From: Chitinophagaceae bacterium
GTDB lineage: Bacteria; Bacteroidota; Bacteroidia; Chitinophagales; Chitinophagaceae
NCBI GenBank assembly: GCA_947447825.1
Contig: CANFLL010000048.1
Coordinates: forward strand, 1-33,026
Length of the DNA: 33,026 nt
Reading direction: 5' to 3'
Positions 271-32,875 of the stretch are shown here, in pieces. The notes under the pieces are model-generated. The model searched no databases, was not told the origin of the DNA, and saw nothing but the letters and a program-made list of their open reading frames with translations. A program made the translations under genes and the position numbers. Positions within the stretch are counted from its first letter, which is position 1. Every line of letters begins with the position of its first letter.

Positions 271-590
271 CCAATTCATGCAAGTCCTTTTTCTGAGACA
301 CGTGAATTTGTGGTGAAATAGGGGTCTATCATTCTGGAGAGGCATAAAACAGGACAAATTCATGTGTCTTTTTTTTCTGGGTCTGACGAATTAGCACGAA
401 TACATGTGTCCCAGTTTTCTGAGTGGCATGTATTTGTACCAATTCATGTGTCCCAGTTTTTGGAGAGGCATGAATTTGCACCAATTCACGTGTCCCAGTT
501 TTTACGGTGCCTTGTATTTGCACAAATTCATGTGTCCCTGTTTTCTGGGTCTGACAAATTAACGCAAAATTGGGCATGTCCAAAACTTAG
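271..590. repeat. 42-bp tandem array built from inverted 21-bp halves
   Basis: The motif CATGTGTC (or CACGTGTC) recurs at 361, 403, 445, 487 and 529, exactly 42 bp apart. A degraded copy begins near 271 with CCAATTCATG. A second marker, GGTCTGAC, occurs at 380 and 548, four periods apart. Within each unit the second half resembles the reverse complement of the first: AATTCATG is followed by CATGAATT or CATGTATT, so dyad centres alternate every 21 bp (about 437.5 and 458.5). Because 42 is a multiple of three, both strands stay open for more than 80 codons across the array. The encoded 14-residue repeat has no start context or recognised family, so I call it DNA repeat rather than gene. Confidence 0.8.
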
Positions 591-632
591 AGAGGGAATG
601 GTATTGTTTTTATCTTCTCCATAATATCTTGC

Positions 633-657
633 CGTCAATGCGAGGCACGAAGCAACC
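633..657. repeat. Degenerate dispersed GCGAGG-ACGAAGCAA repeat
   Basis: The segment reads TGCGAGGCACGAAGCAA near its centre. It resembles a short repeat scattered between genes in many Bacteroidota genomes, usually seen as TTGCGAGG-ACGAAGCAA. Only one copy lies in this window, so the assignment rests on recall of that sequence. Function unknown. Confidence 0.4.
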
Positions 658-821
658 ATTTTCATAATTCCATTAATTTAAATACGCAAAGGAGATTGAT
701 TATTTATATGTTTGGCCTTCATTGAGGCACCTAACAAAAGAAAGGAACTAGCAAGCAAAATAGATTTCATCATGTGTAAGCACATTAATATTAAAAAACG
801 TAACTATTCAGGGGATATTTA

Positions 822-945
822 ACCACAAAGGTGACTAAGGCTTTCACCAAGAACACAAGGATTGTGTTGTATTATCTCTTCAGTACTACCATTGGGGAAC
901 TCTAAACCTTAGTGTCCTTAGTTTTTTCCTTGTGTACTTTGTGGT
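822..945. repeat. Imperfect inverted repeat, ACCACAAAG family
   Basis: The left arm (822-860) begins ACCACAAAG and the right arm (907-945) ends CTTTGTGGT. Between these ends the arms share further pieces such as CACAAGG/CCTTGTG and CTAAGG/CCTTAG. The sequence resembles the dispersed ACCACAAAG..CACAAAGG repeats common between Bacteroidota genes. The arms are diverged and the loop is about 46 nt, so it looks like two old copies facing each other rather than a working hairpin. Confidence 0.45.
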
Positions 946-1107
946 GAAACTAAACAACTTATAAAAAAACCTAGTAAGGAAAAGCTGCAATAATCAACTA
1001 CTAACTAAAACATAATCGCTTACTTAATTTGTTTGACCTCAACGTAATGAATTCTACCCTCAAGAAAAAACTTCACAAATAATTGTCTTTTTGTACTTCT
1101 TAAATAC

Positions 1108-1153
1108 ATGACGAGTTAACTGCTTATAAAATGACGAGTTAACTGCTTATAAA
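1108..1153. repeat. Two perfect 23-bp tandem copies
   Basis: A 23-bp unit beginning ATGACGAGTTAACTGC occurs at 1108-1130 and again at 1131-1153 with no mismatch, which points to a recent slippage duplication. It contains the palindrome GTTAAC. It lies about 350 bp upstream of the TIG-repeat gene. The rest of 954-1502 holds no gene that I can support. Confidence 0.8.
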
Positions 1154-1502
1154 TGTATAGTTAGGGATAGGCAGAGCGAATTATCGAACTTCTTTTAAGT
1201 AAACTGCTGCTGGACAATATTTCTAGATATATCGAAAAAAGACAGTTTTTTATCCACAAATGTCATATTTATCTAAAAAAATGAACTGAAAAGGTAATTA
1301 TCTGAATGAAAAACATTACTTTGCGCCAGTATGCAAATTTTACTTCGGAAAGTAGCGATTAATCAGTAAGTACAATCAGCTTGATAAAAGTGAAATTGTC
1401 GGTTAAAGATGATTACTTATCAGACATATAAGGGAATCAATAAGGGTTCAGGAATCAGTAACAAAGACAGTCAATTAAAAATTCAAACAAAAACAAGTTT
1501 AT

Positions 1503-4500
1503 ATGCTTCAAACTCAACACAACTACAAAAAACTTTTTACCATTGCTTTCTTGGCTTTGTTTTTTTCTTTTTTTGCTGAGCTAACTCAGGCGCAAACAAT
1601 TTCATCTATTTCTCCTTTAAAGGCTTGTGTGGGAGGAACTGTTACTTTAACAGCGCAATCGAATGGTGGTTTTACTGGAGCAACTTCCGTAACTTTTGGC
1701 TCTACCACCGCCTCTTTCACCATTACAAATAGTGGTAACACAATTACGGTTACCGTACCAAGCATTACAGCAAGTGCAAGTGGAACCGCTGCTTCAATTA
1801 AGGTAGGATCTGGAACACCTAAATCTGGATTCTCTTGCGTTACATTACCTACTGTTTCAAACATTGTTGGAACTGGTATTTCTGCAAATTCTGGTAGTAC
1901 AACAGCTGTCAGTGGTATTATCGGCGGAACTATTACTATAAGTGGTGGCAATTTTACTTCATCGGGGACTTCATTAGTTTCTTCTCTCACAATTAATGGT
2001 ATAAATTGTTTATCAGTAGCATCTGTTGGAGTCAATTCAATTGCTATTAACTCAAATAGTCTTGGTTTATATGGTTCATTTCCATTTCAACTAACAATTG
2101 CAGGGAAAACATTCACAACAACAAACAATTTTTCTTGTACACCAACTGTTACAGGGCTTTCAACAAGTGATTTTGCTAGTGCCCCTATTTTTGCGGGTAC
2201 TGATAAGGTTGTAACTATTACAGGGTCAGGCTTCAATGGTGCTACAGCAGTTACATTTGGAAACATTGCTGCCACTGATGTCAGTGTAATTAGTAATAAT
2301 AGCATCACTGCTAAAGTAGCATCTGGAGCTTCTGGAACAGTAGCAGTAACAACTTCCGGAGGAACAAACACTACTTCTCCCAGTTTCACATTTGTTTCTC
2401 CCTCAACAGTAACTGCTTTTTACCCAGCATCTGCTAAAACAGGAAGCAAAGTTACCATCTCAGGAACAAACTTTGTTAGCGGTGCTATCAAATCTGTTCA
2501 GTTTGGTGGTACGGATGCAGCTTCTTTTACAGTTGATAATTCAACTACTATTTCTGCGGTAATAGCAGCAGGTGCTTCTGGAAGCGTAACCGTGACCACA
2601 GTAACAGGAACCTATACTTCACCGGGCTTGTTTACTTATTTAGCAGTACCTACCATCAGTAGCTTATCGTCTTACACTATTTACGGTGGCGATGTAATTA
2701 CAATTACTGGAACCAATTTTAGTGGCACTACAGATGTTCAGTTTGGTGGTGTTTCTGCTGCCTTCACAGTGGTTAGTAGCTCAAGTATTACGGCAACAGT
2801 ACCTTCTGGTGTAGTTGGAGCCGCAGATGTAACAGTTGTAAATCCATCAGCAACATCAAATATTGTATCATCAACTGTAAATAACAAATGGACTGGAACA
2901 CATTCTTCCGATTGGAGTGATGCTTTAAATTGGACTGCAGGAATAAAACCAGATGCCGAAGAAGCCTATGTTCCTTCAGGTTTAACTACAAATCCTATTT
3001 TGAGTGGTGATGAAGTTATAAATAATTTAAAACTCGATGGTACATTGGCAATAAATGGTAACACCTTGTATTTGGAAAATACCCCAACTGGTTCTGGTTC
3101 GTTTATAGGTTCTACTACTTCTACTTTGCAAATGGATGGAACAGGTACAGTTAAATTTGTTTCTGGCAATAATGATCTTTTAAATTTATATGTAACAGGT
3201 AGTATGACTTTAGGAAATGCCCTTAATCTTTATGGAATTCTAAATGTTGGTTCTGGTACGTTTAACACAGGCGGATTCTTAACCCTTAAAAATACTAGTT
3301 ATTCTCAAAACGCCATGGTGGCAACTGTAGGAGGAACCATTTCAGGGAATGTAACAGCAGAAAGATTTATTCCTAGAAATACCAATTTTAGACCATTTAT
3401 TGATCTTAGCCCAATTGTATACGGGGGAAGTATATTTAATAACTGGCAAGAGGGTGGTGTTAATTCTAATGGCTATGGCTTAAAAATTACTGGCATTAAA
3501 GGTTATTGGGATAGTGCAGATGCTGTGAAAGGATTTGATGCCTCACCAACAGGTAATGGGTCTATGCAGACTTATACTAATGGTGTTTGGGCTTATCCTA
3601 CTAGTACAAAAACTATGATTCTAGATCCTACAAGAGGCTATAGAGTATTAGCAAGGGGAAATAGGGCGCAATCATTATTTACGTCTCAACCAGCTATAAT
3701 GACTAGTGATGTTAACTTGCGCACTACTGGAACGTTAATTACAGGCGATGTAACATATACTACTTCTAGTGTAACAAGTGCAAATGGCTTCAGCTCCTCA
3801 AATCATTTAAATGCTACTACTAACTCATTTAGCTTTATAGGTAATCCTTTTGCTAGCACTGTTAGTTGGTCTAGAATTTTAAGTGGCTCTAGTGGTGTAA
3901 CCTCGTATTACTATTACCTAGATCCAAATGTAATGAGTGGAACAAATACAAGTACATATATAAGTTATTTGGATGATGGAACTGGAACTGGTACAGGTAC
4001 AAGCAGTGATGGAAGCTCCTCTGTATCTGATGACATTCAAGTGGGTCAAGGATTCTTTATTCAGCAGGATGGTTCTGGCACTTCTCCTGTGTTAGTTATT
4101 CCTGAGTCTGCAAAGACGGCAGGTGTCAACTCGCCTACAGCTGTATTTGGTGTTAAAACGCCAATCAATAAACTTGCTTTAAATCTATTTAGAGATGGCA
4201 GATCGATAGATGGAACTGTATCAACGTTTAAAGTTAGTTTTAGTAAAGCCATAGGCAAGGGAGATTGTCCTAAATTATTTAATTCTGGAGAGAATTTAAT
4301 GGTTAACAAAGGAAATCGTAGTTTATCAATAAGTGGCTTTGGCTTACCATCAGCAAGTGACACTATTAATTTACAATTATTTAATACTGCTAAGAATTAT
4401 AATTATCAGTTGAAGTTTAACGCAAACCAATTTAATGGTAATGGCTTTTCAGCAGTTTTAAATGACAGTTATCTAAATAATAGTACCAAGATTGCAAGTG

Positions 4501-5120
4501 ATAGCACCCTAGTTAGTTTCACTACCACTAATGATTCTGCTACCAACGTTAATAGGTTCTATGTAACCTTTGTGCCTATCACATTGCCAGTAACTTCAAT
4601 TGTGGTTAAAGCATCACCAACAAGCAGTAATTATGTTTTGCTAACTTGGACTTCTCTGTCAACCAATGTTTCTTCTTTTGTTATTCAGCGTTCTACGAAT
4701 GGTAGAGATTATGTTAATGTTGCTACCGTTAATTCAGGTATAAAAAGCTTCACTGACTCATCTGTTTTGTCTGGTCAACTATATTACAGAGTTAAGGCTA
4801 TAAACGTTAATGAATCGGTAGGATTCAGTGATGCAGTTAGCGTTTCATTAATTAAGGCAAATTCTGGCATAGTTGTATATCCTAACCCCGTTTATGGTAG
4901 CTATTTCAATATTGAATTGAACCAAGCTGCAAAAGGAAACTACAGTGTTCAGTTGTATTCTGTTTTAGGTAAAAAGGTATTTGCAAAAGAGGTAAGTCAT
5001 ACTGGTGGAAAATTCAATAAAACAATATCTGTAGATAGCAAACTAGCTGCTGGTACCTATTTCATTAAGCTAACAGGAGATAATGGGTTGGTTTATCAAA
5101 AAGAAATAGCCGTTAAATAA
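1503..5120 (+). CDS. Secreted IPT/TIG-repeat surface protein with T9SS sorting domain
   Basis: A 1205-residue exported protein. Residues 1-31 form a signal peptide ending near TQAQ. About five IPT/TIG immunoglobulin-like repeats follow (roughly 34-465), recognisable from recurring phrases such as VTITGSGFNGATAVTFG and ITITGTNFSGTTDVQFGG. From about 470 there is a WTGTHSSDWSDALNW segment, often seen in Bacteroidota cell-surface proteins, then a long beta-rich region with no catalytic motif that I recognise. A fibronectin-like stretch near 1040-1110 leads into a T9SS C-terminal domain (1123-1205) starting IVVYPNPVYG. Such proteins cross the outer membrane and are anchored or released. Role is inferred as adhesion or matrix binding; the ligand is unknown. 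It is followed after 15 nt by a small anchored protein, probably co-transcribed. Confidence 0.85.
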   Translation: MLQTQHNYKKLFTIAFLALFFSFFAELTQAQTISSISPLKACVGGTVTLTAQSNGGFTGATSVTFGSTTASFTITNSGNTITVTVPSITASASGTAASIKVGSGTPKSGFSCVTLPTVSNIVGTGISANSGSTTAVSGIIGGTITISGGNFTSSGTSLVSSLTINGINCLSVASVGVNSIAINSNSLGLYGSFPFQLTIAGKTFTTTNNFSCTPTVTGLSTSDFASAPIFAGTDKVVTITGSGFNGATAVTFGNIAATDVSVISNNSITAKVASGASGTVAVTTSGGTNTTSPSFTFVSPSTVTAFYPASAKTGSKVTISGTNFVSGAIKSVQFGGTDAASFTVDNSTTISAVIAAGASGSVTVTTVTGTYTSPGLFTYLAVPTISSLSSYTIYGGDVITITGTNFSGTTDVQFGGVSAAFTVVSSSSITATVPSGVVGAADVTVVNPSATSNIVSSTVNNKWTGTHSSDWSDALNWTAGIKPDAEEAYVPSGLTTNPILSGDEVINNLKLDGTLAINGNTLYLENTPTGSGSFIGSTTSTLQMDGTGTVKFVSGNNDLLNLYVTGSMTLGNALNLYGILNVGSGTFNTGGFLTLKNTSYSQNAMVATVGGTISGNVTAERFIPRNTNFRPFIDLSPIVYGGSIFNNWQEGGVNSNGYGLKITGIKGYWDSADAVKGFDASPTGNGSMQTYTNGVWAYPTSTKTMILDPTRGYRVLARGNRAQSLFTSQPAIMTSDVNLRTTGTLITGDVTYTTSSVTSANGFSSSNHLNATTNSFSFIGNPFASTVSWSRILSGSSGVTSYYYYLDPNVMSGTNTSTYISYLDDGTGTGTGTSSDGSSSVSDDIQVGQGFFIQQDGSGTSPVLVIPESAKTAGVNSPTAVFGVKTPINKLALNLFRDGRSIDGTVSTFKVSFSKAIGKGDCPKLFNSGENLMVNKGNRSLSISGFGLPSASDTINLQLFNTAKNYNYQLKFNANQFNGNGFSAVLNDSYLNNSTKIASDSTLVSFTTTNDSATNVNRFYVTFVPITLPVTSIVVKASPTSSNYVLLTWTSLSTNVSSFVIQRSTNGRDYVNVATVNSGIKSFTDSSVLSGQLYYRVKAINVNESVGFSDAVSVSLIKANSGIVVYPNPVYGSYFNIELNQAAKGNYSVQLYSVLGKKVFAKEVSHTGGKFNKTISVDSKLAAGTYFIKLTGDNGLVYQKEIAVK

Positions 5121-5135
5121 ATTAGTAACTACAAA

Positions 5136-5426
5136 ATGAAAAATATGAATCGTAAGACAATTTTATTAGTAATACTTTGTATCCTTTTTAAATTTAATGT
5201 GGATGCTCAAATTGATGTTGGAGGATTAGGCACTAGTACAAGTACTACCAATGGGGTAGGTGGGGATGTTTCTGATCAAGTAGGTGCATCTGGAACTACA
5301 GGTGGCAGTCAGGGCGCACAAGTGCCGATTGATGGAAGTATTGCTATTTTAATTGCTGCTGGTGTAGCTGCTTTAGGCTTTAAGCTCTATAAGACTCATA
5401 GAGAACTGGCAAATGTTACTATATAG
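5136..5426 (+). CDS. Small secreted protein with PID-type C-terminal anchor
   Basis: 96 residues. An N-terminal signal peptide (about 1-25, ending VDAQ) precedes a Gly/Ser/Thr-rich linker (26-65). The C-terminus has VPIDGSIAILIAAGVAALG followed by basic residues (KLYKTHR). This short PIDG motif plus a single membrane segment plus a basic tail matches, from memory, the PID-CTERM class of small Bacteroidota proteins, which often sit beside large secreted proteins. It starts 15 nt after the TIG protein and is followed by a strong terminator, so the two form a transcription unit. Function unknown; a partner or anchor for the upstream protein is only an inference. No RBS is visible, as usual for the phylum. 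Confidence 0.75.
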   Translation: MKNMNRKTILLVILCILFKFNVDAQIDVGGLGTSTSTTNGVGGDVSDQVGASGTTGGSQGAQVPIDGSIAILIAAGVAALGFKLYKTHRELANVTI

Positions 5427-5464
5427 TTACACTATTTTGTAGCAATCACTCTACAATAATTAAT

Positions 5465-5496
5465 AAAAAGGACTTCCTGTTAAGGAAGTCCTTTTT
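5465..5496 (+). terminator. Intrinsic terminator after the TIG/PID pair
   Basis: A perfect 14-bp stem: AAAAAGGACTTCCT at 465-478 of the 5-kb line, loop GTTA, and AGGAAGTCCTTTTT at 483-496. The T-tract suits the plus strand. The A-tract on the other side would also let it act on minus-strand transcripts arriving from the protease gene. Confidence 0.9.
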
Positions 5497-5645
5497 CGTT
5501 TATAAGTATTGTGAATTTAACAGTCACAAACAAACTTCATTTCGCCGCATTTGTGTTGACTAAATTGTTTGATACTGAAAAGGACCTAATCAAAATCCAT
5601 TTTTGAAAGGGCTTCTTAATTGTCATTTGCCATTGTTGTTCTCCA

Positions 5646-5714
5646 CTGTCATTTCGCAGAAATCTCTTTCACAAAATGAATTCTATTATAAAAGTGATTT
5701 CTACGAAATGACAG
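5646..5714. repeat. Inverted repeat of the TGTCATTTCG family
   Basis: Arms at 5646-5666 and 5694-5714 pair over 21 bp with two mismatches. The outer end is CTGTCATTTCG and the loop is 27 nt. The sequence resembles the TGTCATTTCG..AGAAATCTC dispersed repeat known from many Bacteroidota genomes. It sits just downstream of the 3' end of the minus-strand protease gene and could contribute to mRNA 3'-end formation. Confidence 0.65.
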
Positions 5715-5735
5715 GTAGATACAAGGCATAACTTA

Positions 5736-9248: not shown

Positions 9249-9410
9249 TGCCTTTCGTATGATTAATCAATTGCTAAGATAAGAGGAGAACGGAAAAAGT
9301 AATCGTTTAGTAATAATCTCCCATCATCTTAAAATAATTGGAAAATTAAATAGCTCAACAAATAGTTACAATGCCAAATGACCACAAAAGCAAAGTTTTT
9401 ATTTTATTAA

Positions 9411-9477
9411 GCACTAAGGGCAAAAAAAGTGTAAGCAAGTTGACCCTTTTTTTGATTTCCCCAAAGGTTTATACCCA
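9411..9477. repeat. Diverged direct repeat, copy 1
   Basis: A 67-bp stretch starting GCACTAAGGGC aligns without gaps to 10175-10241 starting GCACTATGGAC. I count about 50 of 67 positions identical. Shared anchors are GTAAGC and CTTTTTTTGAT. Similarity continues weakly upstream (TAGTTACAATGCC against TAGTCACAATTGCC). The pair brackets the 21-bp array in this gap. Confidence 0.6.
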
Positions 9478-9612
9478 GAATGGAAGTAGTTAGTCCTCTT
9501 ATTTGCTGTACTATACATTTGCTTAAAAAATATAGTAAAGGACCTAATCACTGTTTCCTTTAATCTAATCTTACCAAGCTTCCTATTCTTGTAGAAAATG
9601 CCATAAAAGTCA

Positions 9613-9638: not shown

Positions 9639-9686
9639 AATCAATTCTTTAAACTCCTTACCAGAGGTCTGGCACTTTAATGAAAT

Positions 9687-9980
9687 GCCACTTTTCCTCT
9701 ATGAGACCCAATTGGTTTTGTCTTAGAACCAATTGGATCGAAGATAAGTCTGGTTGAAACAAACTTGTTTTCAATCGATTTTTAGCCCAATACAAGCAAA
9801 TTAGCCACTAATTCACTTGCTTTTTCCCATCAATCATCTGGTTTTGTGATAATACCAATTGGTTCAAGGATATAATCAGCTAAAATAGGGTCAAATTATG
9901 CCTCTTTAAACATGCATTCAATTGGTATTAAGACAAAACCAATTGGTTTTAAAATGAATGTTACTGGTAATAAATCAGAG
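9687..9980. repeat. Degenerate 21-bp periodic array with CCAATTGG palindrome core
   Basis: CCAATTGG occurs at 9708, 9729, 9855 and 9939, and TCAATTGG at 9918. Every interval (21, 126, 63, 21) is a multiple of 21. Intervening units keep phase although their cores have decayed, for example CTGGTTTTGT in the unit at 9834 and CTGGTAATAA in the unit at 9960. The region has stops in all frames, so it is not coding. Units flanking the perfect cores share a GGTTTTGT or GGTTTTA tail. This is an old array with a strictly kept phase. Confidence 0.75.
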
Positions 9981-10620: not shown

Positions 10621-10664
10621 TTTTTAGACTAAGGATTGTCACTACCCACCTGTGTTCCGCCAAA

Positions 10665-14527: not shown

Positions 14528-14640
14528 CGAAGACAATAAAGCATCACCATAAGTAAAAAAGGAAGATGCAAAGGCAATAAAGCATCATCTACATCGATTA
14601 AAGCTTGAGTTAATACGAATAAAGCAAGAATAAAGTAACA
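14528..14640. repeat. Weak TAAAGC periodicity in the ccoP-ccoG gap
   Basis: The gap of 164 bp has no gene. CAATAAAGCATCA occurs at 14534 and 14575. The word TAAAGC occurs at 14537, 14578, 14599 and 14620, with TAAAGT at 14631, giving spacings of 41, 21, 21 and 11. This echoes the 21-bp spacing of the other gaps but is short and AT-rich enough to be partly chance. Confidence 0.35.
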
Positions 14641-20915: not shown

Positions 20916-21087
20916 GGCTACTGCTTAACAGAATAAAATCCTTGTGTTATTTGTAAAATTCCGAGTTTATTATATGGCAAAATAAGCCCTAAGAGTAACC
21001 ATAATTATCAAATTTGAGTGTGAAAAAGAGGGGTTTTGTTTAATTAAAGGGATGAAATAGCCAAGATAGCTTCATTAAACGTATTAA

Positions 21088-21308
21088 AGTGCCTCCAAGG
21101 AAACATTTGAGGAGTCCAACGAAACTGTTGAGGAGTTCCAAGATTTACCCGAGGAACTCCCCGACAAAGTTTAGGAGCTCCTCAACAATGTTTTGGTACT
21201 CCCAGTAAAGTTCTTGGAGTACCAAGAATTTGTTTAGGAGTTCCTCGAGATGTTCGAGGAACTCCTCGAAAGTTTCCTTGGCATCCTAAACATATTCGTT
21301 GGGGACAA
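21088..21308. repeat. 21-bp tandem array with GGAGTTCC/GGAACTCC quasi-palindrome cores
   Basis: Ten units start at 21088, 21109, 21130, 21151, 21172, 21193, 21214, 21235, 21256 and 21277, exactly 21 bp apart, with a weak eleventh at 21298. Each clear unit has a 10-nt core such as GAGGAGTTCC, GAGGAACTCC, TAGGAGCTCC, TTGGTACTCC or TTGGAGTACC followed by an 11-nt variable spacer. Cores appear in both orientations, and GGAGCTCC is a perfect palindrome. Part of the minus strand stays open (21182-21391, heptapeptide repeat of GVPR/GTPK type) because 21 is a multiple of three, but no start, motif or neighbour supports a gene. Confidence 0.88.
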
Positions 21309-22128
21309 TAAAAACTTGCATCACGAAAATAAGTATGGCCAGCTAAAGGAAGAAAAGTTGTTGGATGAGTTTGAGGATTATTGGTTGCCACTGGAGGTTA
21401 TCAGACAGTAGTCCCCAATAAAATGTGTAGCACTTACAAATTTTTAACGGATTATTGTTTACTTCCTAATTGAAGTTGTAAACAATAAGATAAGTGGATA
21501 CAGAATGAAAATGTATTGAAAATATTAAGTTAAATAGCTTGAATTTGGAGATAGGTATCTCTATATTTGTATAGACGCAACTGTAATGTGGCTGTATCAA
21601 GTGTAGAATTTTATCCAAGTGAAGATGAAATCAACGTAAAAAAAGACGTTATAAAGTTGGATTAAAACCTCTTGAGTAATATGCAAGAGATTTTGGATTT
21701 AATAGGTGCTTCCAGTTAAATATGTAACAAAACCAAAAGACTTATTTCTAAAATAATTGTAGAAAATAAGTAGATAATGGAACAATAAACATAGAAATCA
21801 GCAGAGGGAATATAATTCAGGATGAGGAAGTAATTGTAAAATTAGTACATTGAATAAGCAATGAAGATAGACTCTAGCTTAGGCTAGCTGCCGCCAATAT
21901 CTAGGTTTTGGTTGCGCCCTAAGGGCAAGTAATTAAAAACCTAGTTGTCATGTATTAGCAAATTATGTAGCTCTTATTTGGCAAGCAGTCAATAGAATCT
22001 TTTATGAGGTAGTATTTTTGATTTGTATAAAACAGAAAGCTAGTGTCAAAAAAAATGCATAGTTATGATAGTGCATAACAGTTGTTTATTAATGCCACAC
22101 TAGTTTGCGTGCCTAACATTTTGTTTTT
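21309..22128. other. Intergenic stretch, no supported gene
   Basis: Stops are frequent in all frames and no protein family could be recognised. It holds the nested hairpin described separately. A TATTTTTG box at 22013-22020, 108 nt before the lyase gene, matches TAnnTTTG but lacks a well-spaced TTG, so it is only a weak promoter candidate for that gene. Confidence 0.5.
21901..21944. repeat. Nested hairpin
   Basis: Outer arms CTAGGTTTT (21901-21909) and AAAACCTAG (21936-21944) are exact complements. Inside them GCCCT-A-AGGGC (21916-21926) forms a second palindrome. The surrounding sequence is AT-rich, so the GC-rich centre stands out. It may be a dispersed element or a structured RNA; no partner copy is present in the window. 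Confidence 0.5.
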
Positions 22129-24618: not shown

Positions 24619-24639
24619 GGAAGAATTTATTGTTGAAAT

Positions 24640-24679
24640 AAAAAGGGATGCTTCATCATTAACGAAACATCCCTTTTTT
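24640..24679. terminator. Bidirectional terminator between convergent genes
   Basis: AAAAAGGGATG (24640-24650) pairs with CATCCCTTTTT (24668-24678) over 11 bp, with A- and T-tracts on either side. It lies 22 nt after the lyase and 8 nt from the end of pflA, so it can serve both strands. Confidence 0.85.
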
Positions 24680-24686
24680 ATATATC

Positions 24687-25478: not shown

Positions 25479-25514
25479 ATTTTAATAAACTATTTCATTC
25501 AAAAATAGGAAAAG

Positions 25515-25540
25515 AAAAGGGACTTGGAAAAGCCCCTTTT
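25515..25540 (-). terminator. Hairpin with U-tract between pflB and pflA
   Basis: On the transcribed minus strand AAAAGGGGCTT and AAGTCCCTTTT pair over 11 bp with one mismatch around a 4-nt loop and run into UUCUUUUCC. It looks like an intrinsic terminator inside the operon. Partial read-through would keep the activase well below PflB; alternatively it protects the focA-pflB message. Confidence 0.65.
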
Positions 25541-25573
25541 TAATATAACAACCTTATGACAAAACAGCTAACG

Positions 25574-27814
25574 TTATAAGCTTTCGTGAAAAGTTCGTGC
25601 AATAACTTCTAGTTGATGTGCTTTTGATAATCGAATGAAGTTTACAGCATATCCAGAAACCCTTATTGTAAGTTGAGGATACTTTTCTGGATTCTGATAT
25701 GCATCCATCAGTGTTTCTCTGTTTAATACATTCACATTAAGATGCTGTGCATTCTTGAAGAAATATCCATCTAATAAAGCAACTAGATTTTCAACCTGAA
25801 CCGAGTTGGTGTTTCCTAAAGATTTGGGAACTACAGAAAATGTATTTGAAATTCCATCTTGAGCATATCTATATTCCAACTTTGCAACACTATTCAATGA
25901 AGCTATAGCTCCATTGGTATCCCTTCCATGCATTGGGTTTGCTCCGGGGGCAAATGGTTCCCCTGCATTTCTTCCATCGGGTGTAGCACCTGTCATTTTT
26001 CCATACATTACATTTGATGTTATGGTTAACAAGGACATGGTAGGGACTGCATTTTTATAAGTTTTATGTGACTTTAATTCGTTAAAGAAGAACTCAGCAA
26101 TTTCTTGTGAAATAATATCAACCTTGTCGTCGTCATTACCATACTTTGGAAAGTTTCCTTCTATTTCAAATGAAGTAGCTAATCCTAATTCATTTCTAAT
26201 TGCTTTTACTTTTGCATATTTTATTGCAGAAAGTGAATCGGCAATGATTGATATACCTGCAGCACCATAAGCAATGTCAATACCGGGATCAGTATCAATA
26301 AAAGCCATCTGAGATTTTTCGTAGTAATACTTGTCGTGCATATAATGAATGATGTTCATTGCTTTGCTATACACTCTCGCTACTTCTTTCATCGTCAATT
26401 TGAAGTTTGCAAGCACTTCGTCATAATTTAGTATGTCATCTTTCAAAGCTGGTATTCCTTTCAAGACGGCTACTCCTTCCTTCTCTTCGCAACCAGCATT
26501 CAATGCTAGCAACAATGTTTTTGGAAGATTAGTTCTTGCTCCAAAGAACTGAATACGTTTACCTATTTCTTGATAGGAAACGCAACAAGCTATTCCATAA
26601 TCATCGGAATGTCTGTTTGGGCGCATCAAGTCATCATTTTCATATTGGATGGAAGAAGTGTCTATTGAAACCTTTGCGCAAAACTCTTTAAACCCTTCAG
26701 GTAAGTGTTTACTCCATAATACAGTAAGGTTTGGTTCGGGTGAAGCACCAAGATTATACAATGTTTGCAAGAATCTGAAAGATGTCTTGGTTACTTTTGT
26801 TCTGCCATCATCAAATTGTCCGCCCAAAGCTTCGGTTACCCATGTAGGATCACCACCAAATATTTCATCATAAGCACCAGGGCGAAGATGGCGAACCATA
26901 CGAAGTTTCATTACAAATTGATCAATCAGTTCTTGTGCTGCAATTTCGTCCAATCGACCTTCGGCTAAATCTCTTTCAATGTAAATATCAAGAAAAGAAG
27001 CCACATTTCCCAAGGACATAGCTGCACCATCTTGTTCTTTAACAGCCGCCAAGTAAGCCATATAAACCCATTGCACTGCTTCTTGTGCAGTCTCAGCAGG
27101 TCGATTAAGATCTAAACCATAAATGGCACCTAATTCAATAATGTCTCTCAAGGCGAGTATCTGGTCATTTACTTCCTCTCTTAACCTAATTTGATGCTCT
27201 GTCAATTCTCCATCAATAGCTTGTTTGTCTGCTTGTTTAGCAGCAATTAATTTGTCGCAGCCGTACAAAGCCAAACGGCGATAATCACCAATAATTCGTC
27301 CTCTTGCATAGTTGTCTGGCAATCCAGTTAGGATTCCTTTAGAGCGGAAAGCCATTATTTCAGAATCATAAGCAGAAAACACTGCACTATTGTGGTCTTT
27401 TACATAATCAAAAACACGTTTTACTTCATAAGCTACCGTTTCTCCCCTTTCTTTCGCTGCATTTTCTACTACCCTGATTCCACCAAATGGCTTAATAGCT
27501 CTTTTAAGTAATTGATCAGTTTGAAGCCCAACTATTTTTTCAAGATTCTTAGCAATGTAGCCAGCTTCATGACTAGTTATTGTTGAAATCTTTTGTGTAT
27601 CTATTGCTAGGCATCCATTGTTTTCTCTTTCTTTTTTCATTGCAACTAAACAAATATCCCACAGTTGTTTAGTTGCTGGAGTTGCTGCTTCTAAAAATGA
27701 AGCATCTCCATGGTAAGGGGTAATATTTCTTTTTACAAAATCTTTTACTTCAATACACTTGTTCCATGAACCTTGTTCAAAGTCCATTAGAAGATTTTCT
27801 GTTACTTGTTTCAT
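25574..27814 (-). CDS. pflB: Pyruvate formate-lyase
   Basis: 746 residues, close to the usual 750-760. It converts pyruvate and CoA to acetyl-CoA and formate without oxygen. The catalytic cysteine pair is Cys410-Cys411 in [10 protein letters not shown]. The glycyl radical site is Gly721 in [10 protein letters not shown] near the C-terminus. [18 protein letters not shown] is also typical. The start [17 protein letters not shown] fits the family. It lies 50 nt after focA. The enzyme is destroyed by oxygen once activated, so its presence implies anaerobic or microaerobic growth phases. Confidence 0.97.
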
Positions 27815-27864
27815 AATTGTATTTTTAAATGTTGTTATATTTTATATTTTATTTTCCATTAACG

Positions 27865-28677
27865 TCAATCATCTTGGTATTTTCTAGCCTCATATACCTG
27901 CTCATTAAACATAAACCAGTATGGTAAAGCTACTAGCACAACACCCCCTATAATGTTTCCGAGTGTTGCTGGCAATAGATTGACAATTAAAAATTGATAG
28001 AGGCTAATATGTGCGCCTAAAAACATTGCTGTAGGAAAAAAGAACATGTTTGCAACACTGTGTTCCATTCCAAATACTACAAAACACATTACGGGAAACC
28101 AAAGTGCAAGTATTTTGCCGCCAATTTCTTTTGCTGAATAGGAAATCCATACAGCCATACAAACTAGCCAGTTGGCTACAATGCCTTTAACGAATGTTAT
28201 CCAAAAGCAGCTTTCTATTTTGTGTTCAGCAAGTTTTATGGTTGAATTCCGCCATGAATCAACAGACAAAATACCTGTTTGAAAGGCAATGAAATAGGCT
28301 ACAAATAAAGCTCCGATGAAATTGCCAAGATATACAATACTCCAAACACGGAAAATACTTTTGATAGGTAATTGCCGATGGAGTACACCAAACGGAATAA
28401 CTGCACAGTCGCTTGTGAATAATTCTGCCCCACCAATTACTACTAGTATCAACCCAACAGGGAAAAGAGAGCCGAAAAAAAATTTTGTGATGCCAGGGTT
28501 AGATGCGGCTATGCCTGGCATTCCGCCAACGACCACTAATGATAGTAATCCACCTAAAGCAATATACGAACCTCCTAAAAGAGAATATATTAGTAGTTTT
28601 ATATTTGTAAAAGCATTTTTTTGTTGAGCACTTTTGCAAAACTGTATTGCAATTTCGGAGGGAGCTAGATAACTCAT
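27865..28677 (-). CDS. focA: FocA-type formate channel
   Basis: 270 residues, FNT family, six membrane helices expected. The central pore histidine is His206 in GMEHSVANMFF and the loop threonine is Thr88 in GGAELFTSD. FLGAHISLYQFLIVNLLPATLGNIIGG near the C-terminus is the other family signature. It exports or imports formate made by PflB. As first gene of the operon it follows an FNR-like site and a -7 box. The tail lacks other domains. Confidence 0.95.
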   Translation of the reverse strand: MSYLAPSEIAIQFCKSAQQKNAFTNIKLLIYSLLGGSYIALGGLLSLVVVGGMPGIAASNPGITKFFFGSLFPVGLILVVIGGAELFTSDCAVIPFGVLHRQLPIKSIFRVWSIVYLGNFIGALFVAYFIAFQTGILSVDSWRNSTIKLAEHKIESCFWITFVKGIVANWLVCMAVWISYSAKEIGGKILALWFPVMCFVVFGMEHSVANMFFFPTAMFLGAHISLYQFLIVNLLPATLGNIIGGVVLVALPYWFMFNEQVYEARKYQDD

Positions 28678-28702
28678 AAGCTATTTATCTTCTGTTGTTA
28701 GG

Positions 28703-28710
28703 CGAAACTA
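28703..28710 (-). promoter_or_regulatory. Predicted -7 box of focA-pflB-pflA
   Basis: On the minus strand TAGTTTCG, followed by CC, matches TAnnTTTG with one change. The same TTCG variant appears before purB (TACATTCG). It ends 25 nt before the focA start codon, giving a leader of about 20 nt. Confidence 0.45.
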
Positions 28711-28732
28711 TATTTGTGAGCCTTGGGAAAAT

Positions 28733-28746
28733 ATGATTTTTATCAT
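28733..28746. promoter_or_regulatory. FNR/CRP-type site upstream of focA
   Basis: A perfect 14-bp palindrome, ATGAT-N4-ATCAT, which contains the FNR core TGAT-N4-ATCA. Its centre (28739.5) is about 42 bp upstream of the transcription start expected from the -7 box, the classic class II activator position. The cbb3 operon has the same core. Known biology: FNR activates focA-pfl in Escherichia coli. Confidence 0.65.
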
Positions 28747-29655
28747 TGGTCAAACTGATTAAAATATAATGGCTATTATCAGAACTTTTGACTTCAAGAG
28801 CTATAGATTATTTTATCAAAAAAGAGTGGATAGTTTTTGTGAGACGCAATTATGGACGACTATTTTCCAGTCGTCAAGCAATTTTATTTCATTTTAGCTT
28901 TTATTGGTTATATGGTTTAGTACAAGACGTCGCTAAGGACTTGCTTGTTTATACTTATATGTAAGATAACCTACTATCATTTCATCAATCTACACACGTT
29001 ACGCATAAAGAACTGCTAAATGAATGATTTTTTACTTTTGCGATTTGTAAAACTTCGTTGATATTTATATATACTATTTGATTCGTAGCCTTTTTCAGAC
29101 TACAGCAATAAGGTTTCACCTGAATAAATCAACACAATCTACAAAAAGTGATTGGGAGTGGAGGAGTATTGCAAGACGATAAAAAGCAATTTTAGCTTTG
29201 CAAATTCACTACGAAAAACTTTCAAGATTCAATCAAACCATTTTATGCTGACTATCATTACCTATATAAAGCAGGAACGGGTTCGATAATGAACTGGGAA
29301 GAACCATTTTGCTAGGAAGGCAATTTACTTGCGGAAGATAGAAATGTGCCTTATAAAAGTTTGGAAAAGATTTATTCGGTAAAGAATGTGGCTTAACATA
29401 TAGTTGCTGAAGAACTAGGAAAAAATGTGAACTAACAGTTGCATTAACATGTCGTTGTGCTTAAGGTGAGTAATGAAGTCAATTTTTAATCAATAATCAG
29501 GCAGCTTATAATACAATTTAAATATCTATCACTTTGTGATAATTTTTTTTCGATAACGTTTTCTTTGGCACAAGATTAGAAATGAAAGTTGGTAGAAAAA
29601 CACCATCTATTACTTACTGATGGAAGTTGAGAGGATAAAATGAAGGGCGTATTAA
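28747..29655. other. Intergenic, with a possible gene relic at 29148-29430
   Basis: No intact gene. From about 29148 one plus-strand frame reads protein-like text (such as FYADYHYLYKAGTGSIMNWE and LLAEDRNVPYKSLEKIYSVK) broken by four in-frame stops, which could be a decayed gene; the family is not recognised. A 7-bp hairpin GACGACT/AGTCGTC lies at 28855-28875. TATCAC-TTT-GTGATA at about 29529-29543 is a small palindrome about 113 nt before the receiver gene. Confidence 0.35.
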
Positions 29656-30123
29656 ATGACATTAAAAATTAGGATTATGAGACAGTTACATATCATGCTT
29701 ATAGAAGGTAATCCAGGTGATGTAATCATTACCAGTGAAGCACTCAATGAAACAAAGGCAACAAGAAAAATTAGCATCGCAACAAATGGTGATGAAGCTA
29801 TGCACTATTTTGAAGAACTAATTTTTAATAAAAATGCCGATTATCCTGATATAATTTTCATGGATACTTATTTGCAAAACACCGATAGCTATCATTTACT
29901 AAATTACATTAAATCAACTAATTCTTTAAGGCACATACCAGTAATTATTTCTACTGATTCTGCTTATGAACAAGACATAAATTATGCTTATCAAAACTTG
30001 GCTACAGCTTTTGTAAGTAAGTCTTCGCAGGTAGATGTTTACTTCAATCATATTTCAAAAACCATTGAATACTGGACAACGGTTGCTTCTCTACCAACGC
30101 TTAATACACATTTGTCTACATAA
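29656..30123 (+). CDS. Stand-alone response-regulator receiver protein, partly degenerate
   Basis: 155 residues; ATG 29677 (MRQLHIMLIEGNPGD) is an equally good start giving 148. A single receiver domain of the Rcp1/CheY-like type. The phosphoacceptor is Asp70 in PDIIFMDTY; Ser99/Thr100 in VIISTDS and Lys122 in FVSKSS keep the switch residues. The acidic pocket normally read as E-D is Glu17-Gly18 here, so one magnesium-binding acidic residue is missing, and the proline after the lysine is absent. No output domain and no kinase nearby. It may be a phosphate shuttle or a receiver that binds partners without normal phosphorylation. Confidence 0.8.
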   Translation: MTLKIRIMRQLHIMLIEGNPGDVIITSEALNETKATRKISIATNGDEAMHYFEELIFNKNADYPDIIFMDTYLQNTDSYHLLNYIKSTNSLRHIPVIISTDSAYEQDINYAYQNLATAFVSKSSQVDVYFNHISKTIEYWTTVASLPTLNTHLST

Positions 30124-30126
30124 AAC

Positions 30127-30177
30127 AGTTAACAAGAATACTGATGATAGTGAGCCATTCTTCACTTATCGTTAACT
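30127..30177. terminator. Possible shared 3' hairpin between receiver gene and mqnA
   Basis: AGTTAAC (30127-30133) and GTTAACT (30171-30177) close a larger fold. Inside it AGTGA and TCACT can pair. It lies between convergent genes, where a two-way terminator is expected, but it has no clear T-tract. Confidence 0.3.
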
Positions 30178-30178
30178 A

Positions 30179-30916
30179 CTAAATGATTTTTTTTAAAAAC
30201 AACTCCAATCCATTTCTACTTTCTTCCGTAAGGTGGTAGTTGATGTTTTGATTGTAGTAGGTGTTCAGATTATAGCTAGAATAATCTCCCTGTTCCTCAA
30301 TGACTTCTTCTATGTGCGCTAGGCCAGAAAGGTTTGCTTCATTAAATTCTGCAATAAAATCTGATGGCAATTGCTTATTAGCCACCCATGCTGCAAAAAC
30401 AAAAGGAAGCCCCGTATGCAGTTGCCAGGCAGTTGCCAGATCGTAAATATAGGTGGAAGAAGCCCTTTGTGCCAATGCTCTATCCCCAATAACTACACCC
30501 GCAGTAGTGCCTTTGATGAGTTGCTGATAATTTGGTTTTGCATCTTCAAACGCCACTTCTTTTTGCCAATATTCCTTCAATAATAGTTTAAAAAGTGCTA
30601 CAGATGTGCGGCTCTGATAGTCTAGTAATACCTTCTCTACCTGTTCAATGGGTACTTCACTAAACAAACACACGGAAGCCACTTCTCCTACAGCACTAAT
30701 GCAAACATCTGTAATGATATGTGCATTAGTAAGCTTTGGGATAATTGCAACTGGCACTAAACCTACATCTATCTTGTCCTCCAATAACATGTTGGCAATT
30801 GCCGCAGGATATTGTTCAATCAACTCAATCATATCTATTAAGCCACTCCTTTTAATGCCATACAACAGTGGTTTAGTATTTAAATAACTCACTGCCCCTA
30901 CCTTTATTTTCTTCAA
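30179..30916 (-). CDS. mqnA: Chorismate dehydratase, menaquinone biosynthesis (MqnA)
   Basis: 245 residues. The N-terminus KIKVGAVSYLNTKPLLYG is the family hallmark; VGLVPVAIIPKL and AGVVIGDRALAQ are the other conserved blocks, and the protein has the two-lobe periplasmic-binding-protein fold. MqnA removes water from chorismate to give 3-enolpyruvylbenzoate, the first step of the futalosine route to menaquinone. No other mqn gene is in the window. It is divergent from purB with 115 bp between; TTTCTTTG on the minus strand (30936-30943) is a weak -7 candidate. Confidence 0.88.
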   Translation of the reverse strand: MKKIKVGAVSYLNTKPLLYGIKRSGLIDMIELIEQYPAAIANMLLEDKIDVGLVPVAIIPKLTNAHIITDVCISAVGEVASVCLFSEVPIEQVEKVLLDYQSRTSVALFKLLLKEYWQKEVAFEDAKPNYQQLIKGTTAGVVIGDRALAQRASSTYIYDLATAWQLHTGLPFVFAAWVANKQLPSDFIAEFNEANLSGLAHIEEVIEEQGDYSSYNLNTYYNQNINYHLTEESRNGLELFLKKII

Positions 30917-30952
30917 AAGTCTTTATTTTTCGTGCCAAAGAAAAGATTTTTA

Positions 30953-30984
30953 TTGTGGTTAAAAATCAGTAATAGTACATTCGC
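30953..30984 (+). promoter_or_regulatory. Predicted purB promoter
   Basis: TTG (30953-30955), a 20-bp spacer and TACATTCGC (30976-30984) fit the Bacteroidota layout TTG-N19/20-TAnnTTTG with one mismatch in the -7 box. The start codon lies 48 nt downstream. Confidence 0.5.
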
Positions 30985-31031
30985 AACCTTTCAAAGCATT
31001 ATTCTTCGTAATTCATAATTTTTAATTCAGC

Positions 31032-32378
31032 ATGGAACTGAACAATTTAACAGCTATTTCGCCTGTAGACGGTCGTTATCGTAAGCAAGTAGACTTTTTG
31101 GGTAATTATTTCTCTGAGTTTGCGCTCATCAAATACCGCGTTTTTGTAGAGATAGAATATTTTTTGTTTTTAGCTGATAAAAAATTATTTAAGCTTTCTC
31201 CTAAAGCAAAACAAAAACTAAAAGCTATTACGGATAATTTTAGTTTAGAAGATGCTCAGTCTATAAAAGATATTGAAGCCGTCACTAATCATGACGTGAA
31301 AGCTGTGGAATATTTTATCAAAAAGCATTTTGAAGCCATTGGCATAGAGCCTTTGAAAGAGTGGGTTCACTTCGGTTTAACTTCACAAGATATCAACAAT
31401 ACCGCCATCCCCCTTAGTTGGAAAAACTGTATGGAGTTGGATTATCTGCCAGCCATAGCAAACCTGCAAGCTGTGCTGCAACAATTGGCTACCAACTGGA
31501 AAACCATTTCTATGCTTGCTCGCACTCATGGTCAGCCAGCATCACCCACCGTTTTAGGAAAAGAGATTATGGTATTTGTAGAGCGTTTGGCTAATCAGGT
31601 ACAGCTGTTTTCTTACATTCCTTATGCGGCAAAGTTTGGTGGAGCCACAGGTAACTTCAATGCACATCATATTGCTTTTCCAGAAAAAGATTGGGTGAAA
31701 CTAGGAAATGATTTTGTTGATAATCGCCTCGGATTACAACGAATGCAGTTCACTACACAGATTGAACATTACGATAATTTGGCTGCCCATTGTGATGCCA
31801 TCAAGCGCATAAACAATATTTTGATAGATTTGTGTAGAGACATCTGGACATATATCAGTATGGATTATTTTAAGCAGAAAACGAAAGAAGGTGAGGTAGG
31901 GTCGTCTGCCATGCCACATAAGGTTAATCCGATTGACTTTGAAAATGCAGAAGGTAATTTAGGGGTAGCCAATGCCTTATTAGAACATTTTGCGGCTAAG
32001 TTGCCCATAAGTCGTTTGCAGCGCGATTTAACAGACAGTACTGTTTTGCGCAATATAGGTGTGCCAATTGCGCATACACTATTAGCTGTTAAAAGCTTGC
32101 ACAAAGGGCTTGGCAAATTGTTACTCAATGAAAACAAGATTAGTGATGAACTAGAAAACAATTGGGCAGTAGTTGCCGAGGCTATACAAACCGTTTTGAG
32201 AAGGGAAAACTACCCCAATCCATACGAAGCTTTGAAGGGATTAACTCGTGGAAATCATTCCATAAATAAAGAGTCGATACACAGTTTTATAGAAAGTCTA
32301 GCTGTTAATAACGAATTGAAAGAGGAGCTAAAAGCCATTACACCTGCTAACTATGTAGGCATTATGGCAGCATATTAA
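31032..32378 (+). CDS. purB: Adenylosuccinate lyase
   Basis: 448 residues. It catalyses two steps of purine synthesis: SAICAR to AICAR plus fumarate, and adenylosuccinate to AMP plus fumarate. The fumarase/aspartase superfamily signature SSAMPHKVNPIDFEN lies at 291-305, with the catalytic serine at 291 or 292. ARTHGQPASP (His166) is the general-acid region and WVHFGLTSQDINNTA (111-125) is a further conserved block. Length and motifs match the Escherichia coli PurB type. It is transcribed alone and ends at a strong terminator. Confidence 0.97.
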   Translation: MELNNLTAISPVDGRYRKQVDFLGNYFSEFALIKYRVFVEIEYFLFLADKKLFKLSPKAKQKLKAITDNFSLEDAQSIKDIEAVTNHDVKAVEYFIKKHFEAIGIEPLKEWVHFGLTSQDINNTAIPLSWKNCMELDYLPAIANLQAVLQQLATNWKTISMLARTHGQPASPTVLGKEIMVFVERLANQVQLFSYIPYAAKFGGATGNFNAHHIAFPEKDWVKLGNDFVDNRLGLQRMQFTTQIEHYDNLAAHCDAIKRINNILIDLCRDIWTYISMDYFKQKTKEGEVGSSAMPHKVNPIDFENAEGNLGVANALLEHFAAKLPISRLQRDLTDSTVLRNIGVPIAHTLLAVKSLHKGLGKLLLNENKISDELENNWAVVAEAIQTVLRRENYPNPYEALKGLTRGNHSINKESIHSFIESLAVNNELKEELKAITPANYVGIMAAY

Positions 32379-32397
32379 TATTAAATAATTGATAACT

Positions 32398-32440
32398 AAG
32401 AATCCCTTGCAGTGGTAAGTTGCAAGGGATTCTTGTTTAA
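32398..32440 (+). terminator. Intrinsic terminator of purB
   Basis: AAGAATCCCTTGCA (32398-32411) pairs perfectly with TGCAAGGGATTCTT (32421-32434), a 14-bp stem with a 9-nt loop followed by GTTTAAAA. It starts 19 nt after the purB stop. Confidence 0.85.
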
Positions 32441-32688
32441 AAGTAAAATCATCCTAAGCACAATTCAGTTAAGCAAATAGATTTAAAAAAGAATAAACTA
32501 AGATGTCATTTTTCTATGTCAGATTGTGTTTTTACGTGACAAGTGATTAATTTAAAACGTTGTACTTTAAGAACGAAAATGTGGGCGTATAAAAGGGGGG
32601 GATTTCACTCTTCCCACTTATCAGCCACTCAAATTGTATTGATTGTATGTTTTATAGGCATTCTGCTCCAAATTGTTCAATCAAATCG

Positions 32689-32875
32689 TCACGGCATTGC
32701 CGTTTATGAGTCAAAAAGGGCAATGAATGCCTCATAAACGGCAATGAAAGACTCATAAACGGCAACCGGATGGGGTGTTCTTTGCCGTTTATGGGCTAAA
32801 GTTGGCAAACATTATTGAATCGTTTGCTCCTATTATCTCATAAGGAGCAAACAATCAGCCATAAACGGCAACCGT
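32689..32875. repeat. GCCGTTTATGAG array, partly 21-bp periodic, both orientations
   Basis: CTCATAAACGGCA occurs at 32731 and 32752, 21 bp apart, with a similar in-phase unit at 32710 (16 of 21 positions equal). The reverse orientation TTGCCGTTTATG occurs at 32697 and 32782, 85 bp apart, and another forward copy CATAAACGGCAACCG lies at 32860. A 10-bp hairpin GTTTGCTCCT/AGGAGCAAAC (32822-32831 with 32843-32852) sits inside and has CTCATA in its loop. No gene spans it. Confidence 0.7.

What the first reader, a model, noticed from the sequence alone, without database searches (positions are those of the whole stretch)
271..32875. Intergenic arrays with unrelated cores but one 21-bp pitch
Four gaps (271-590, 9687-9980, 21088-21308, 32689-32875), and weakly a fifth (14528-14640), carry repeats spaced by 21 or 42 bp. 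The cores differ completely: AATTCATG, CCAATTGG, GGAGTTCC, GCCGTTTATGAG. A constant pitch with changing sequence suggests that spacing is the selected or generated property. 21 bp is two helical turns, so cores would sit on one face of the DNA. The clearest cores are palindromic or alternate in orientation. This could be a family of locally generated binding arrays, curved-DNA elements, nucleoid-protein sites, or the product of a slippage process that copies in 21-bp steps. I know of no named element like it.
Basis: partly seen in the sequence, partly recalled or inferred. Interest (0 to 1): 0.72.

Follow-up and report, generated by a model that had tools for sequence, protein, structure and literature searches.

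The report
Bacterial repeat arrays sharing 21-bp spacing
Gaps between genes in this bacterium and its close relatives carry short repeat arrays whose letters differ from array to array but whose repeat step is again and again 21 base pairs or a multiple of it, so spacing and mirror symmetry recur while the sequence is rewritten.

Summary
In two separate 400-kb samples of the same genome, intergenic autocorrelation peaks at 21, 42, 63, 84, 105 and 126 bp, with smaller heptamer peaks at 14 and 28. About 300 arrays per genome follow by extrapolation. Of 72 arrays of 100 bp or more, 40 are 168-230 bp long. 96 distinct arrays fall into 66 unit families, and 42 families compared show no shared sequence. 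Dyad symmetry is strongly enriched. 61 of 66 families have no 7-bp substructure. Arrays are modular: one leader precedes six unrelated array families, and one array is rewritten between flanks 98-99% identical. Closest known relative: BrickBuilt, a 23-nt minisatellite in a Porphyromonas gingivalis MITE. Best explanation: satellite-like cassettes copied and exchanged in a locked 21-bp register. Why 21 is unsettled: inherited register, helical-phase selection and a measuring generator all remain open. Against: only one of five ortholog pairs shows units clearly more alike within an array than between species, indels are not rarer than in other repeats, and covariation within units did not replicate.

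The parts
271..590 (.). Array 1: about 7 units of 42 bp (21-bp units alternating with their near reverse complement, core AATTCATG/CATGAATT)
   Evidence: Lag 42 z 14.1; TRF 357-550 period 42; two further copies at 76%
96..662 (+). Dispersed element holding array 1 (3 copies in the genome)
   Evidence: BLAST to the C24 and C28 copies, 79%; alignment A1
9704..9960 (.). Array 2: core CCAATTGG; outer ends form a 31-bp inverted repeat (9708-9738 / 9916-9946, 90%)
   Evidence: second copy on C165 at 69-70%; not reported by TRF
21088..21308 (.). Array 3: about 9-10 units of 21 bp, core GAGGAACTCC/GGAGTTCCTC
   Evidence: Lag 21 z 11.4, 42 z 8.0, 63 z 6.1; dyad symmetry reached by 0 of 300 column permutations; copy on C82 at 90%
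21000..21577 (+). Dispersed element holding array 3 (2 copies)
   Evidence: 584-bp BLAST match to C82, 80%
32689..32875 (.). Array 4: 21-bp units with core TTGCCGTTTATGAG and its reverse complement, in both orientations
   Evidence: Lag 21 z 5.5; TRF 32711-32765 period 21; about 12 places in the genome
32538..32883 (+). Dispersed element holding array 4; conserved flanks, varying numbers of 21-bp units between copies
   Evidence: Multiple alignment of 12 copies, four of them cut by contig ends
14490..14653 (.). Weak array 5 in the ccoP-ccoG gap (AATAAAGCAT repeats)
   Evidence: Lag 21 z 5.2-5.6; not reported by TRF; no 21-bp array in the corresponding stretch of G004

Best explanation
These are dispersed intergenic minisatellites of an unusual kind: cassettes of about 8-11 units of 21 bp with mirror (dyad) symmetry. 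Arrays change by in-register exchange between units, in direct and inverted orientation (slippage, fold-back template switching or gene conversion). Sequence therefore drifts array by array while the unit length stays locked, and the 42-, 63- and 84-bp periods are higher-order repeats of diverged 21-bp units, as in eukaryotic alpha satellites. Whole arrays are also swapped into and out of fixed flanks (a leader, MITE-like elements), so flank and array evolve separately. SHOWN: genome-wide 21-bp pitch, dyad symmetry, a preferred length, sequence-unrelated families, different arrays behind one leader, rewriting of at least one array between conserved flanks. INFERRED: the exchange mechanism, that pitch is kept because copying is in register, and any cellular role.
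For: Pitch 21 and multiples in two own-genome samples and in G004; TRF agrees (35 repeats at 21 and 18 at 42, against 2 at 20 and 2 at 22). 89 of 96 distinct arrays have their best lag at 21, 42 or 63 (they were detected at lags 21-84, so this is not independent). Orthologous array C24/C20: nearest array-free bins 98% and 99% identical, array 75% identical, uniform 21-bp units in the own genome, alternating 42-bp units and 42 bp longer in G004. Beside one orthologous gene the two species carry unrelated arrays (L139/L274). One leader with six array families. A chimeric array holds two families in one register (L246). In three of five ortholog pairs (L131/L279, L134/L273, C24/C20) the array is more diverged than the surrounding match. 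Arrays fold more stably than column-permuted copies (median z -2.8; 37 of 56 below -2, none above +2).
Against: Local homogenisation is clear in only one of five ortholog pairs (L131/L279: units 0.81 and 0.76 alike within, 0.62 between species); two pairs are about even (L147/L286, and the own side of C24/C20), and two go the other way (L132/L276 within 0.80/0.77, between 0.96; L134/L273 within 0.69/0.69, between 0.83). In L132/L276 the array changes more slowly than its surroundings. No relation between families could be detected (861 pairs of 42 families: mean 0.3916, mirror control 0.3923), so descent from one 21-bp ancestor is not shown. In-register copying alone does not explain dyad symmetry or the length near 200 bp. 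Compensatory change inside units appeared in one run (108 against 93.7 +/- 5.1) but not in two re-runs with other selections (66 against 67.2; 37 against 34.8 +/- 3.6). A second genus of the family (G032) has a similar array. I lowered this confidence from 0.42 to 0.38 when rechecking the ortholog figures.
Confidence: 0.38

Rival explanations
1. Selected binding arrays: a protein (nucleoid protein, gyrase-like enzyme or cooperative dimers) recognises dyads on one face of the DNA every two turns, largely independent of their sequence; spacing and symmetry are under selection while the sequence drifts.
For: Sharp 21-bp pitch, dyad symmetry in 17 of 33 and 14 of 21 arrays at p<0.05, preferred length (40 of 72 arrays of 100 bp or more at 168-230 bp); two ortholog pairs keep array length exactly with 8 and 31 substitutions and no indel.
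Against: No shared motif (no 6-mer recurrent in more than 5 of 66 families); indels in repeats of period 20-22, 41-43, 63 or 84 are not clearly rarer than in other repeats (1.48% against 1.80%); no 10-11-bp composition rhythm; arrays lie in all gap types about as the gaps do.
Confidence: 0.26
2. A dedicated generator makes each array anew at a locus by copying in steps of 21 nt (an enzyme that measures length, or fold-back priming that expands hairpins), so the pitch belongs to the machine and the sequence to the local seed.
For: Families with no detectable relation but one pitch, strong hairpin bias, unrelated arrays beside one orthologous gene and behind one leader. Hairpin-based extension of repetitive DNA by polymerases in vitro is discussed and cited in PMC13061963 (abstract and passages seen).
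Against: No candidate enzyme found; Y1 transposases are few (0-7 matches per genome) and 2 of 10 fetched Y1 loci have a lag-42 repeat nearby. Families shared between loci show that existing arrays are also copied.
Confidence: 0.2
3. Ordinary heptamer repeats (STRR) read as multiples of 7.
For: Lag 14 and 28 peaks exist, heptamer-like repeats are common in other Bacteroidota (by eye), and 5 of 66 families are heptamer-like.
Against: The other 61 families have no lag-7 or lag-14 signal (z -3.0 and -1.8).
Confidence: 0.04
4. Decayed or living genes coding for 7-residue repeats.
For: 21 and 42 are multiples of 3; open frames 80 against 69 +/- 6.6 and arrays with an open frame 44 against 37.8 +/- 3.0 in column-permuted controls; 17 of 96 arrays lie in open frames of 100 codons or more; in 3 of 11 leader arrays I read an uninterrupted frame from the leader ATG (by eye).
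Against: The excess is slight; stop-free frames differ between copies; the arrays are dyad-symmetric; other multiples of 3 are less frequent (18: 4, 24: 5, against 35 at 21 and 18 at 42).
Confidence: 0.04

Closest known systems
BrickBuilt MITE of Porphyromonas gingivalis (PMC4596501; abstract and passages seen)
   Same: Bacteroidota; intergenic tandem repeat inside a dispersed element with leader and tail; repeat number varies
   Different: One 23-nt unit, 19 copies in strain ATCC 33277, 1 to 22.8 units; here dozens of unit families at 21 bp, dyad-symmetric, with different arrays behind one leader and about 300 arrays by extrapolation
REP/BIME elements with RAYT transposases (PMC2817692; abstract read)
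   Same: Extragenic palindromic units, regularly spaced, in alternating orientation, dispersed, fast-evolving
   Different: REPs are tied to cognate rayt genes; here cores are unrelated between families and no consistent link to Y1 transposase genes was found
Prokaryotic satellites (PMC6749651; parts 1 and 2 of 5 read)
   Same: Scattered, mutually unrelated satellites, as reported for Methanobrevibacter ruminantium
   Different: Only 18 bacteria had more than 4 satellites/Mb, and the parts I read report no common pitch of this kind; here TRF finds 66 repeats of period 21/42/63/84 in 833 kb (a different definition)
TAACTGA heptamer repeats (PMC4679880; abstract and Bacteroidetes section read)
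   Same: Abundant intergenic direct repeats, also in some Bacteroidetes
   Different: A 7-bp unit of one sequence; 61 of 66 families here have no 7-bp substructure
Alpha-satellite higher-order repeats of eukaryotes (recalled, no call)
   Same: Fixed monomer length, diverged monomers, higher-order multiples, concerted evolution
   Different: Bacterial, about 200 bp long, dyad-symmetric

Membership tests
Minisatellite / tandem repeat | Head-to-tail copies of a unit of about 10-100 bp | tested here: met
   TRF and autocorrelation
MITE carrying a minisatellite (BrickBuilt-like) | Dispersed element with conserved flanks around the array | tested here: met
   Array-4 element, array-1 element, leader elements; not shown for most arrays
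MITE carrying a minisatellite (BrickBuilt-like) | Terminal inverted repeats with target-site duplication | tested here: inconclusive
   Array-2 ends are inverted repeats; outer parts of the array-4 element look inverted by eye; no target duplication or empty site was established
REP/BIME | Palindromic units at regular spacing, in alternating orientation | tested here: met
   met in part of the arrays
REP/BIME | A repeat family linked to a rayt gene flanked by its REPs | tested here: not met
   66 families; Y1_Tnp matches in 12 of 13 genomes, but a lag-42 repeat near only 2 of 10 fetched Y1 loci; the other Y1 matches were not examined
CRISPR array | Identical repeats separated by unique spacers, next to cas genes (recalled) | tested here: not met
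   Whole units are similar, without unique spacers. Cas genes were not searched genome-wide; none among Pfam hits of 17 window ORFs
Heptamer STRR | 7-bp unit | tested here: not met
   No lag-7/14 signal in 61 of 66 families; 5 are heptamer-like
Coding repeats (7 residues) | Open frame preserved beyond chance | tested here: inconclusive
   80 open frames against 69 +/- 6.6
Nucleoid-protein or operator array | A protein binds the array | not testable with these tools
   Needs pull-down or ChIP
Known structured RNA | Match to an Rfam family | tested here: not met
   No match at gathering scores in the window; other loci not scanned

The most novel reading that the evidence does not exclude
A process in these bacteria makes or reads DNA arrays by geometry alone: dyads every 21 bp (two turns) for about 20 turns, with no sequence requirement. 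Each locus can therefore hold a different, quickly rewritten repeat while keeping the same physical shape.
Probability: 0.3. Interest if true: 0.87.

Novelty: new variant of a known kind. Interest (0 to 1): 0.72.

Why it matters
Minisatellites are normally recognised by their sequence. Here a bacterial genome keeps many arrays in which unit length, symmetry and total length recur while the sequence does not. That is a natural set of replicates for asking what fixes a repeat length: inheritance, copying machinery or helical geometry. It would also give a bacterial model of higher-order repeats, and it may explain some of the contig breaks in these assemblies.

Tried and rejected
Heptamer origin: rejected for 61 of 66 families. 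Coding: disfavoured, with a slight unexplained excess of open frames (50 against 42; 80 against 69). Convergent-gap or terminator role: arrays lie in divergent, co-directional and convergent gaps about as the gaps do (16, 36, 10 against 62, 144, 33). Selection against indels: not supported (1.48% against 1.80%; two ortholog pairs have 0 indels in 39 substitutions against a background of 41 per 454, but the other three pairs do have gaps, partly from unequal extracted ends). Within-unit compensatory change: positive, not with other selections; counted as unsupported. Common ancestry of families: not detectable. A universal 6-mer: none. Phage carriage: two exact array patterns gave no hit in viral contigs. 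Rfam: none in the window. Gene behind the leader: no match above Pfam cut-offs and none in PHROGs or NCBIfam at a convincing E-value; no homolog in the sampled stretches, with two leader loci as positive controls. Papers: eight searches showed no title or abstract reporting many unrelated arrays with one 21-bp pitch; they cover open-licence PMC only. Sampling notes: the first own-genome set included stretches with known copies (C2, C24, C28), the second at least one (C30); 5 of 20 G004 stretches were chosen for array-4 hits. The family/order set is labelled 24 genomes by my script but holds 26 (40 stretches, some very short). Clustering used arrays of at least 100 bp; two arrays were listed twice, so its 98 entries are 96 arrays, 17 of them in open frames. 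Dyad tests used arrays of at least 140 bp or of at least 120 bp and non-ORF, with at least 3 units.
Full report
WHAT WAS CHECKED. The window (33,026 bp, contig C48 of a 4.65-Mb, 187-contig genome) is from a Bacteroidota bacterium. Its genes include proteins with C-terminal Por secretion tails, a cbb3 oxidase operon and pyruvate formate-lyase. Its purB is closest, at 75-77% protein identity, to metagenome genomes labelled Bacteroidetes or Chitinophagaceae (nearest records may be left out there). Array 1 peaks at 42 with a deficit at 21 because successive 21-bp units are near reverse complements.

IT IS GENOME-WIDE. I took twenty 20-kb stretches of the same genome. Intergenic DNA (gaps between open frames of 100 codons or more) peaks at 42, 84, 21, 126, 63 and 105; smaller peaks are 85 (one array with an 85-bp period), 14 and 28. 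A second set of twenty stretches, taken afterwards as a replication, gave the same: near-matching 10-mers number 1028 at lag 42 and 928 at lag 21, against a median of 13 over all lags and a maximum of 19 in shuffled gaps. Non-ORF arrays number 25 and 28 in the two 400-kb sets, or about 300 per genome by extrapolation. Tandem Repeats Finder, which allows indels, finds 143 non-overlapping repeats in 833 kb: 35 have period 21, 18 have 42, 8 have 63, 5 have 84 and 5 have 41; 2 have 20, 2 have 22, 17 have 14 and 5 have 7.

HOW FAR IT EXTENDS. The congener G004 has the same peaks, with some weight at 41 and 43 (5 of its 20 stretches were chosen for array hits). Ten other congeners together have 10 arrays, 7 of them non-ORF, in 245 kb. 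By genome, 21/42 segments were seen in G001, G002 (one weak), G003, G007, G010 and G011, and not in small samples of G005, G006, G008 and G012; G006 does have arrays by search. In 26 other genomes of the family and order (636 kb) there are 3 arrays, two of them in G032, where a 401-bp array looks like the same alternating layout by eye. In 80 purB neighbourhoods across Bacteroidota (664 kb) there are 6 non-ORF arrays, none of 140 bp or more, and most of the seven stretches I printed look like heptamer repeats.

ANATOMY. Of 72 arrays of at least 100 bp in the own genome and G004, 40 are 168-230 bp long, with four at about twice that. At least one long one is two unrelated arrays back to back (L138). 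Consensus units show dyad symmetry beyond column-permuted controls in 17 of 33 arrays at p<0.05 (14 at p<0.01) and in 14 of 21 arrays of the replication set (11 at p<0.01). Arrays fold better than column-permuted copies of themselves (median z -2.8; 37 of 56 below -2, none above 2). Excluding 5 heptamer-like families, there is no lag-7 or lag-14 signal, so 21 is not three sevens. Arrays sit in co-directional, divergent and convergent gaps about as the gaps do.

SEQUENCE IS FREE. 96 distinct arrays cluster into 66 families, 52 of them single entries. 89 of the 96 have their best lag at 21, 42 or 63, though they were found by lags 21-84. No 6-mer recurs in more than 5 of the 66 families. A rotation- and strand-free comparison of 42 families gives the same score as its mirror control (0.3916 against 0.3923). 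Pitch, symmetry and length are what the families share.

ARRAYS BEHAVE AS CASSETTES. 16 listed places reach its inner end; I examined 14. Twelve run at once into a 21-bp array (two of these are near-copies in G003), one is cut by the contig end, one has no array. Eleven of the arrays were clustered and fall into six families, although the leaders before them are 78-100% identical to the query. (b) 16 of 25 own arrays could be placed in G004 by a flanking gene. An array lies at the corresponding place in seven (numbers 3, 4, 9, 13, 15, 21, and the heptamer array 18); the others have none there, or the flank is not conserved. In number 13 the two species have unrelated arrays beside the same gene; conservation of the far side was not shown. 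(c) In number 15 the nearest array-free 250-bp bins are 98% and 99% identical, but the array is 75% identical, uniform in one species and alternating in the other, and 42 bp longer in G004. (d) One unit family, TTTTGTCGCATCCGAGG, occurs in 6 of 13 genomes; I printed 20 of its 27 listed places, and by eye they keep the 21-bp step; L246 changes from this family to another in mid-array without losing register. (e) Against fast turnover: pair number 4 is 213 bp in both species and 96% identical, inside an 87.7% match.

WITHIN AGAINST BETWEEN. In five ortholog pairs, units within an array are clearly more alike than orthologous arrays in one (number 3), about even in two (15 on the own side, 21) and less alike in two (4, 9).

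WHAT IT IS NOT. Coding: 80 stop-free frames against 69 +/- 6.6 in permuted arrays, a slight excess that I cannot explain but far from a coding signal. A known RNA: no Rfam match in the window. RAYT/REP: Y1 transposases occur in 12 of 13 genomes but are few, and 2 of 10 fetched loci have a lag-42 repeat nearby.

INTERPRETATION. I favour satellite-like cassettes that change by in-register copying and exchange, including inverted exchange that keeps dyad symmetry. This accounts for shared pitch, higher-order multiples, rewriting and swapping. It does not explain the preferred length or why 21 was chosen. Two rivals remain serious: selection for helically phased dyads, and a generator that measures 21 nt. 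Tests that might have separated them were weak: indel depletion was not seen, no 10-11-bp composition rhythm was seen, and within-unit covariation was seen once and not reproduced twice.

COMPARISON. The nearest described element I found is BrickBuilt of P. gingivalis, a 23-nt minisatellite with leader and tail in a MITE (PMC4596501, abstract and passages seen). It has one unit sequence; here there are dozens, with different arrays behind one leader. A survey of prokaryotic satellites (PMC6749651, parts 1-2 of 5 read) reports scattered unrelated satellites in a few species but no common pitch of this kind in those parts. Eight searches of open-licence papers listed no report of this pattern; subscription papers were not searchable.

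Noticed in passing
L300:1919-2551, L293:1877-2512, L303:1877-2512 and others: Behind 11 leader arrays translated: an ORF of about 211 aa (MN[KQ]VI...) in 6, shortened forms in L309 (80 aa) and L301 (cut by the contig end), a different 230-aa ORF in L292 and L311, none in L291. No convincing Pfam, PHROGs or NCBIfam match.
   Followed up: partly
L242:1333-1365 (query positions 44-76): A REP-like hairpin (AAGGCTTCGCTgaGAGCGAAACCTT) is scattered widely through the genus; it accounts for most rows of the capped list.
   Followed up: no
L129:10089-17122 versus L162:12340-20000: A 2.9-kb inversion between G000 and G004 has 21-bp arrays at or near breakpoints, suggesting that arrays recombine.
   Followed up: no
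G000 contigs C91, C65, C10, C39, C29, C40; L176, L187, L202: Several contigs begin or end within or next to arrays, so short-read assemblies may under-count them.
   Followed up: no
window 787-951: Fold-back repeat with ACCACAAAGG...CTTTGTGGT arms; a related stretch lies in another own-genome locus.
   Followed up: no
window 1108-1153: Perfect tandem pair of a 23-bp unit.
   Followed up: no
L212 (G002), 1295-1424, downstream of purB (which is on the minus strand of the locus): The gap downstream of purB holds a 21/42-bp array with a long central palindrome in G002 too, by eye unrelated to the window's array 4.
   Followed up: partly
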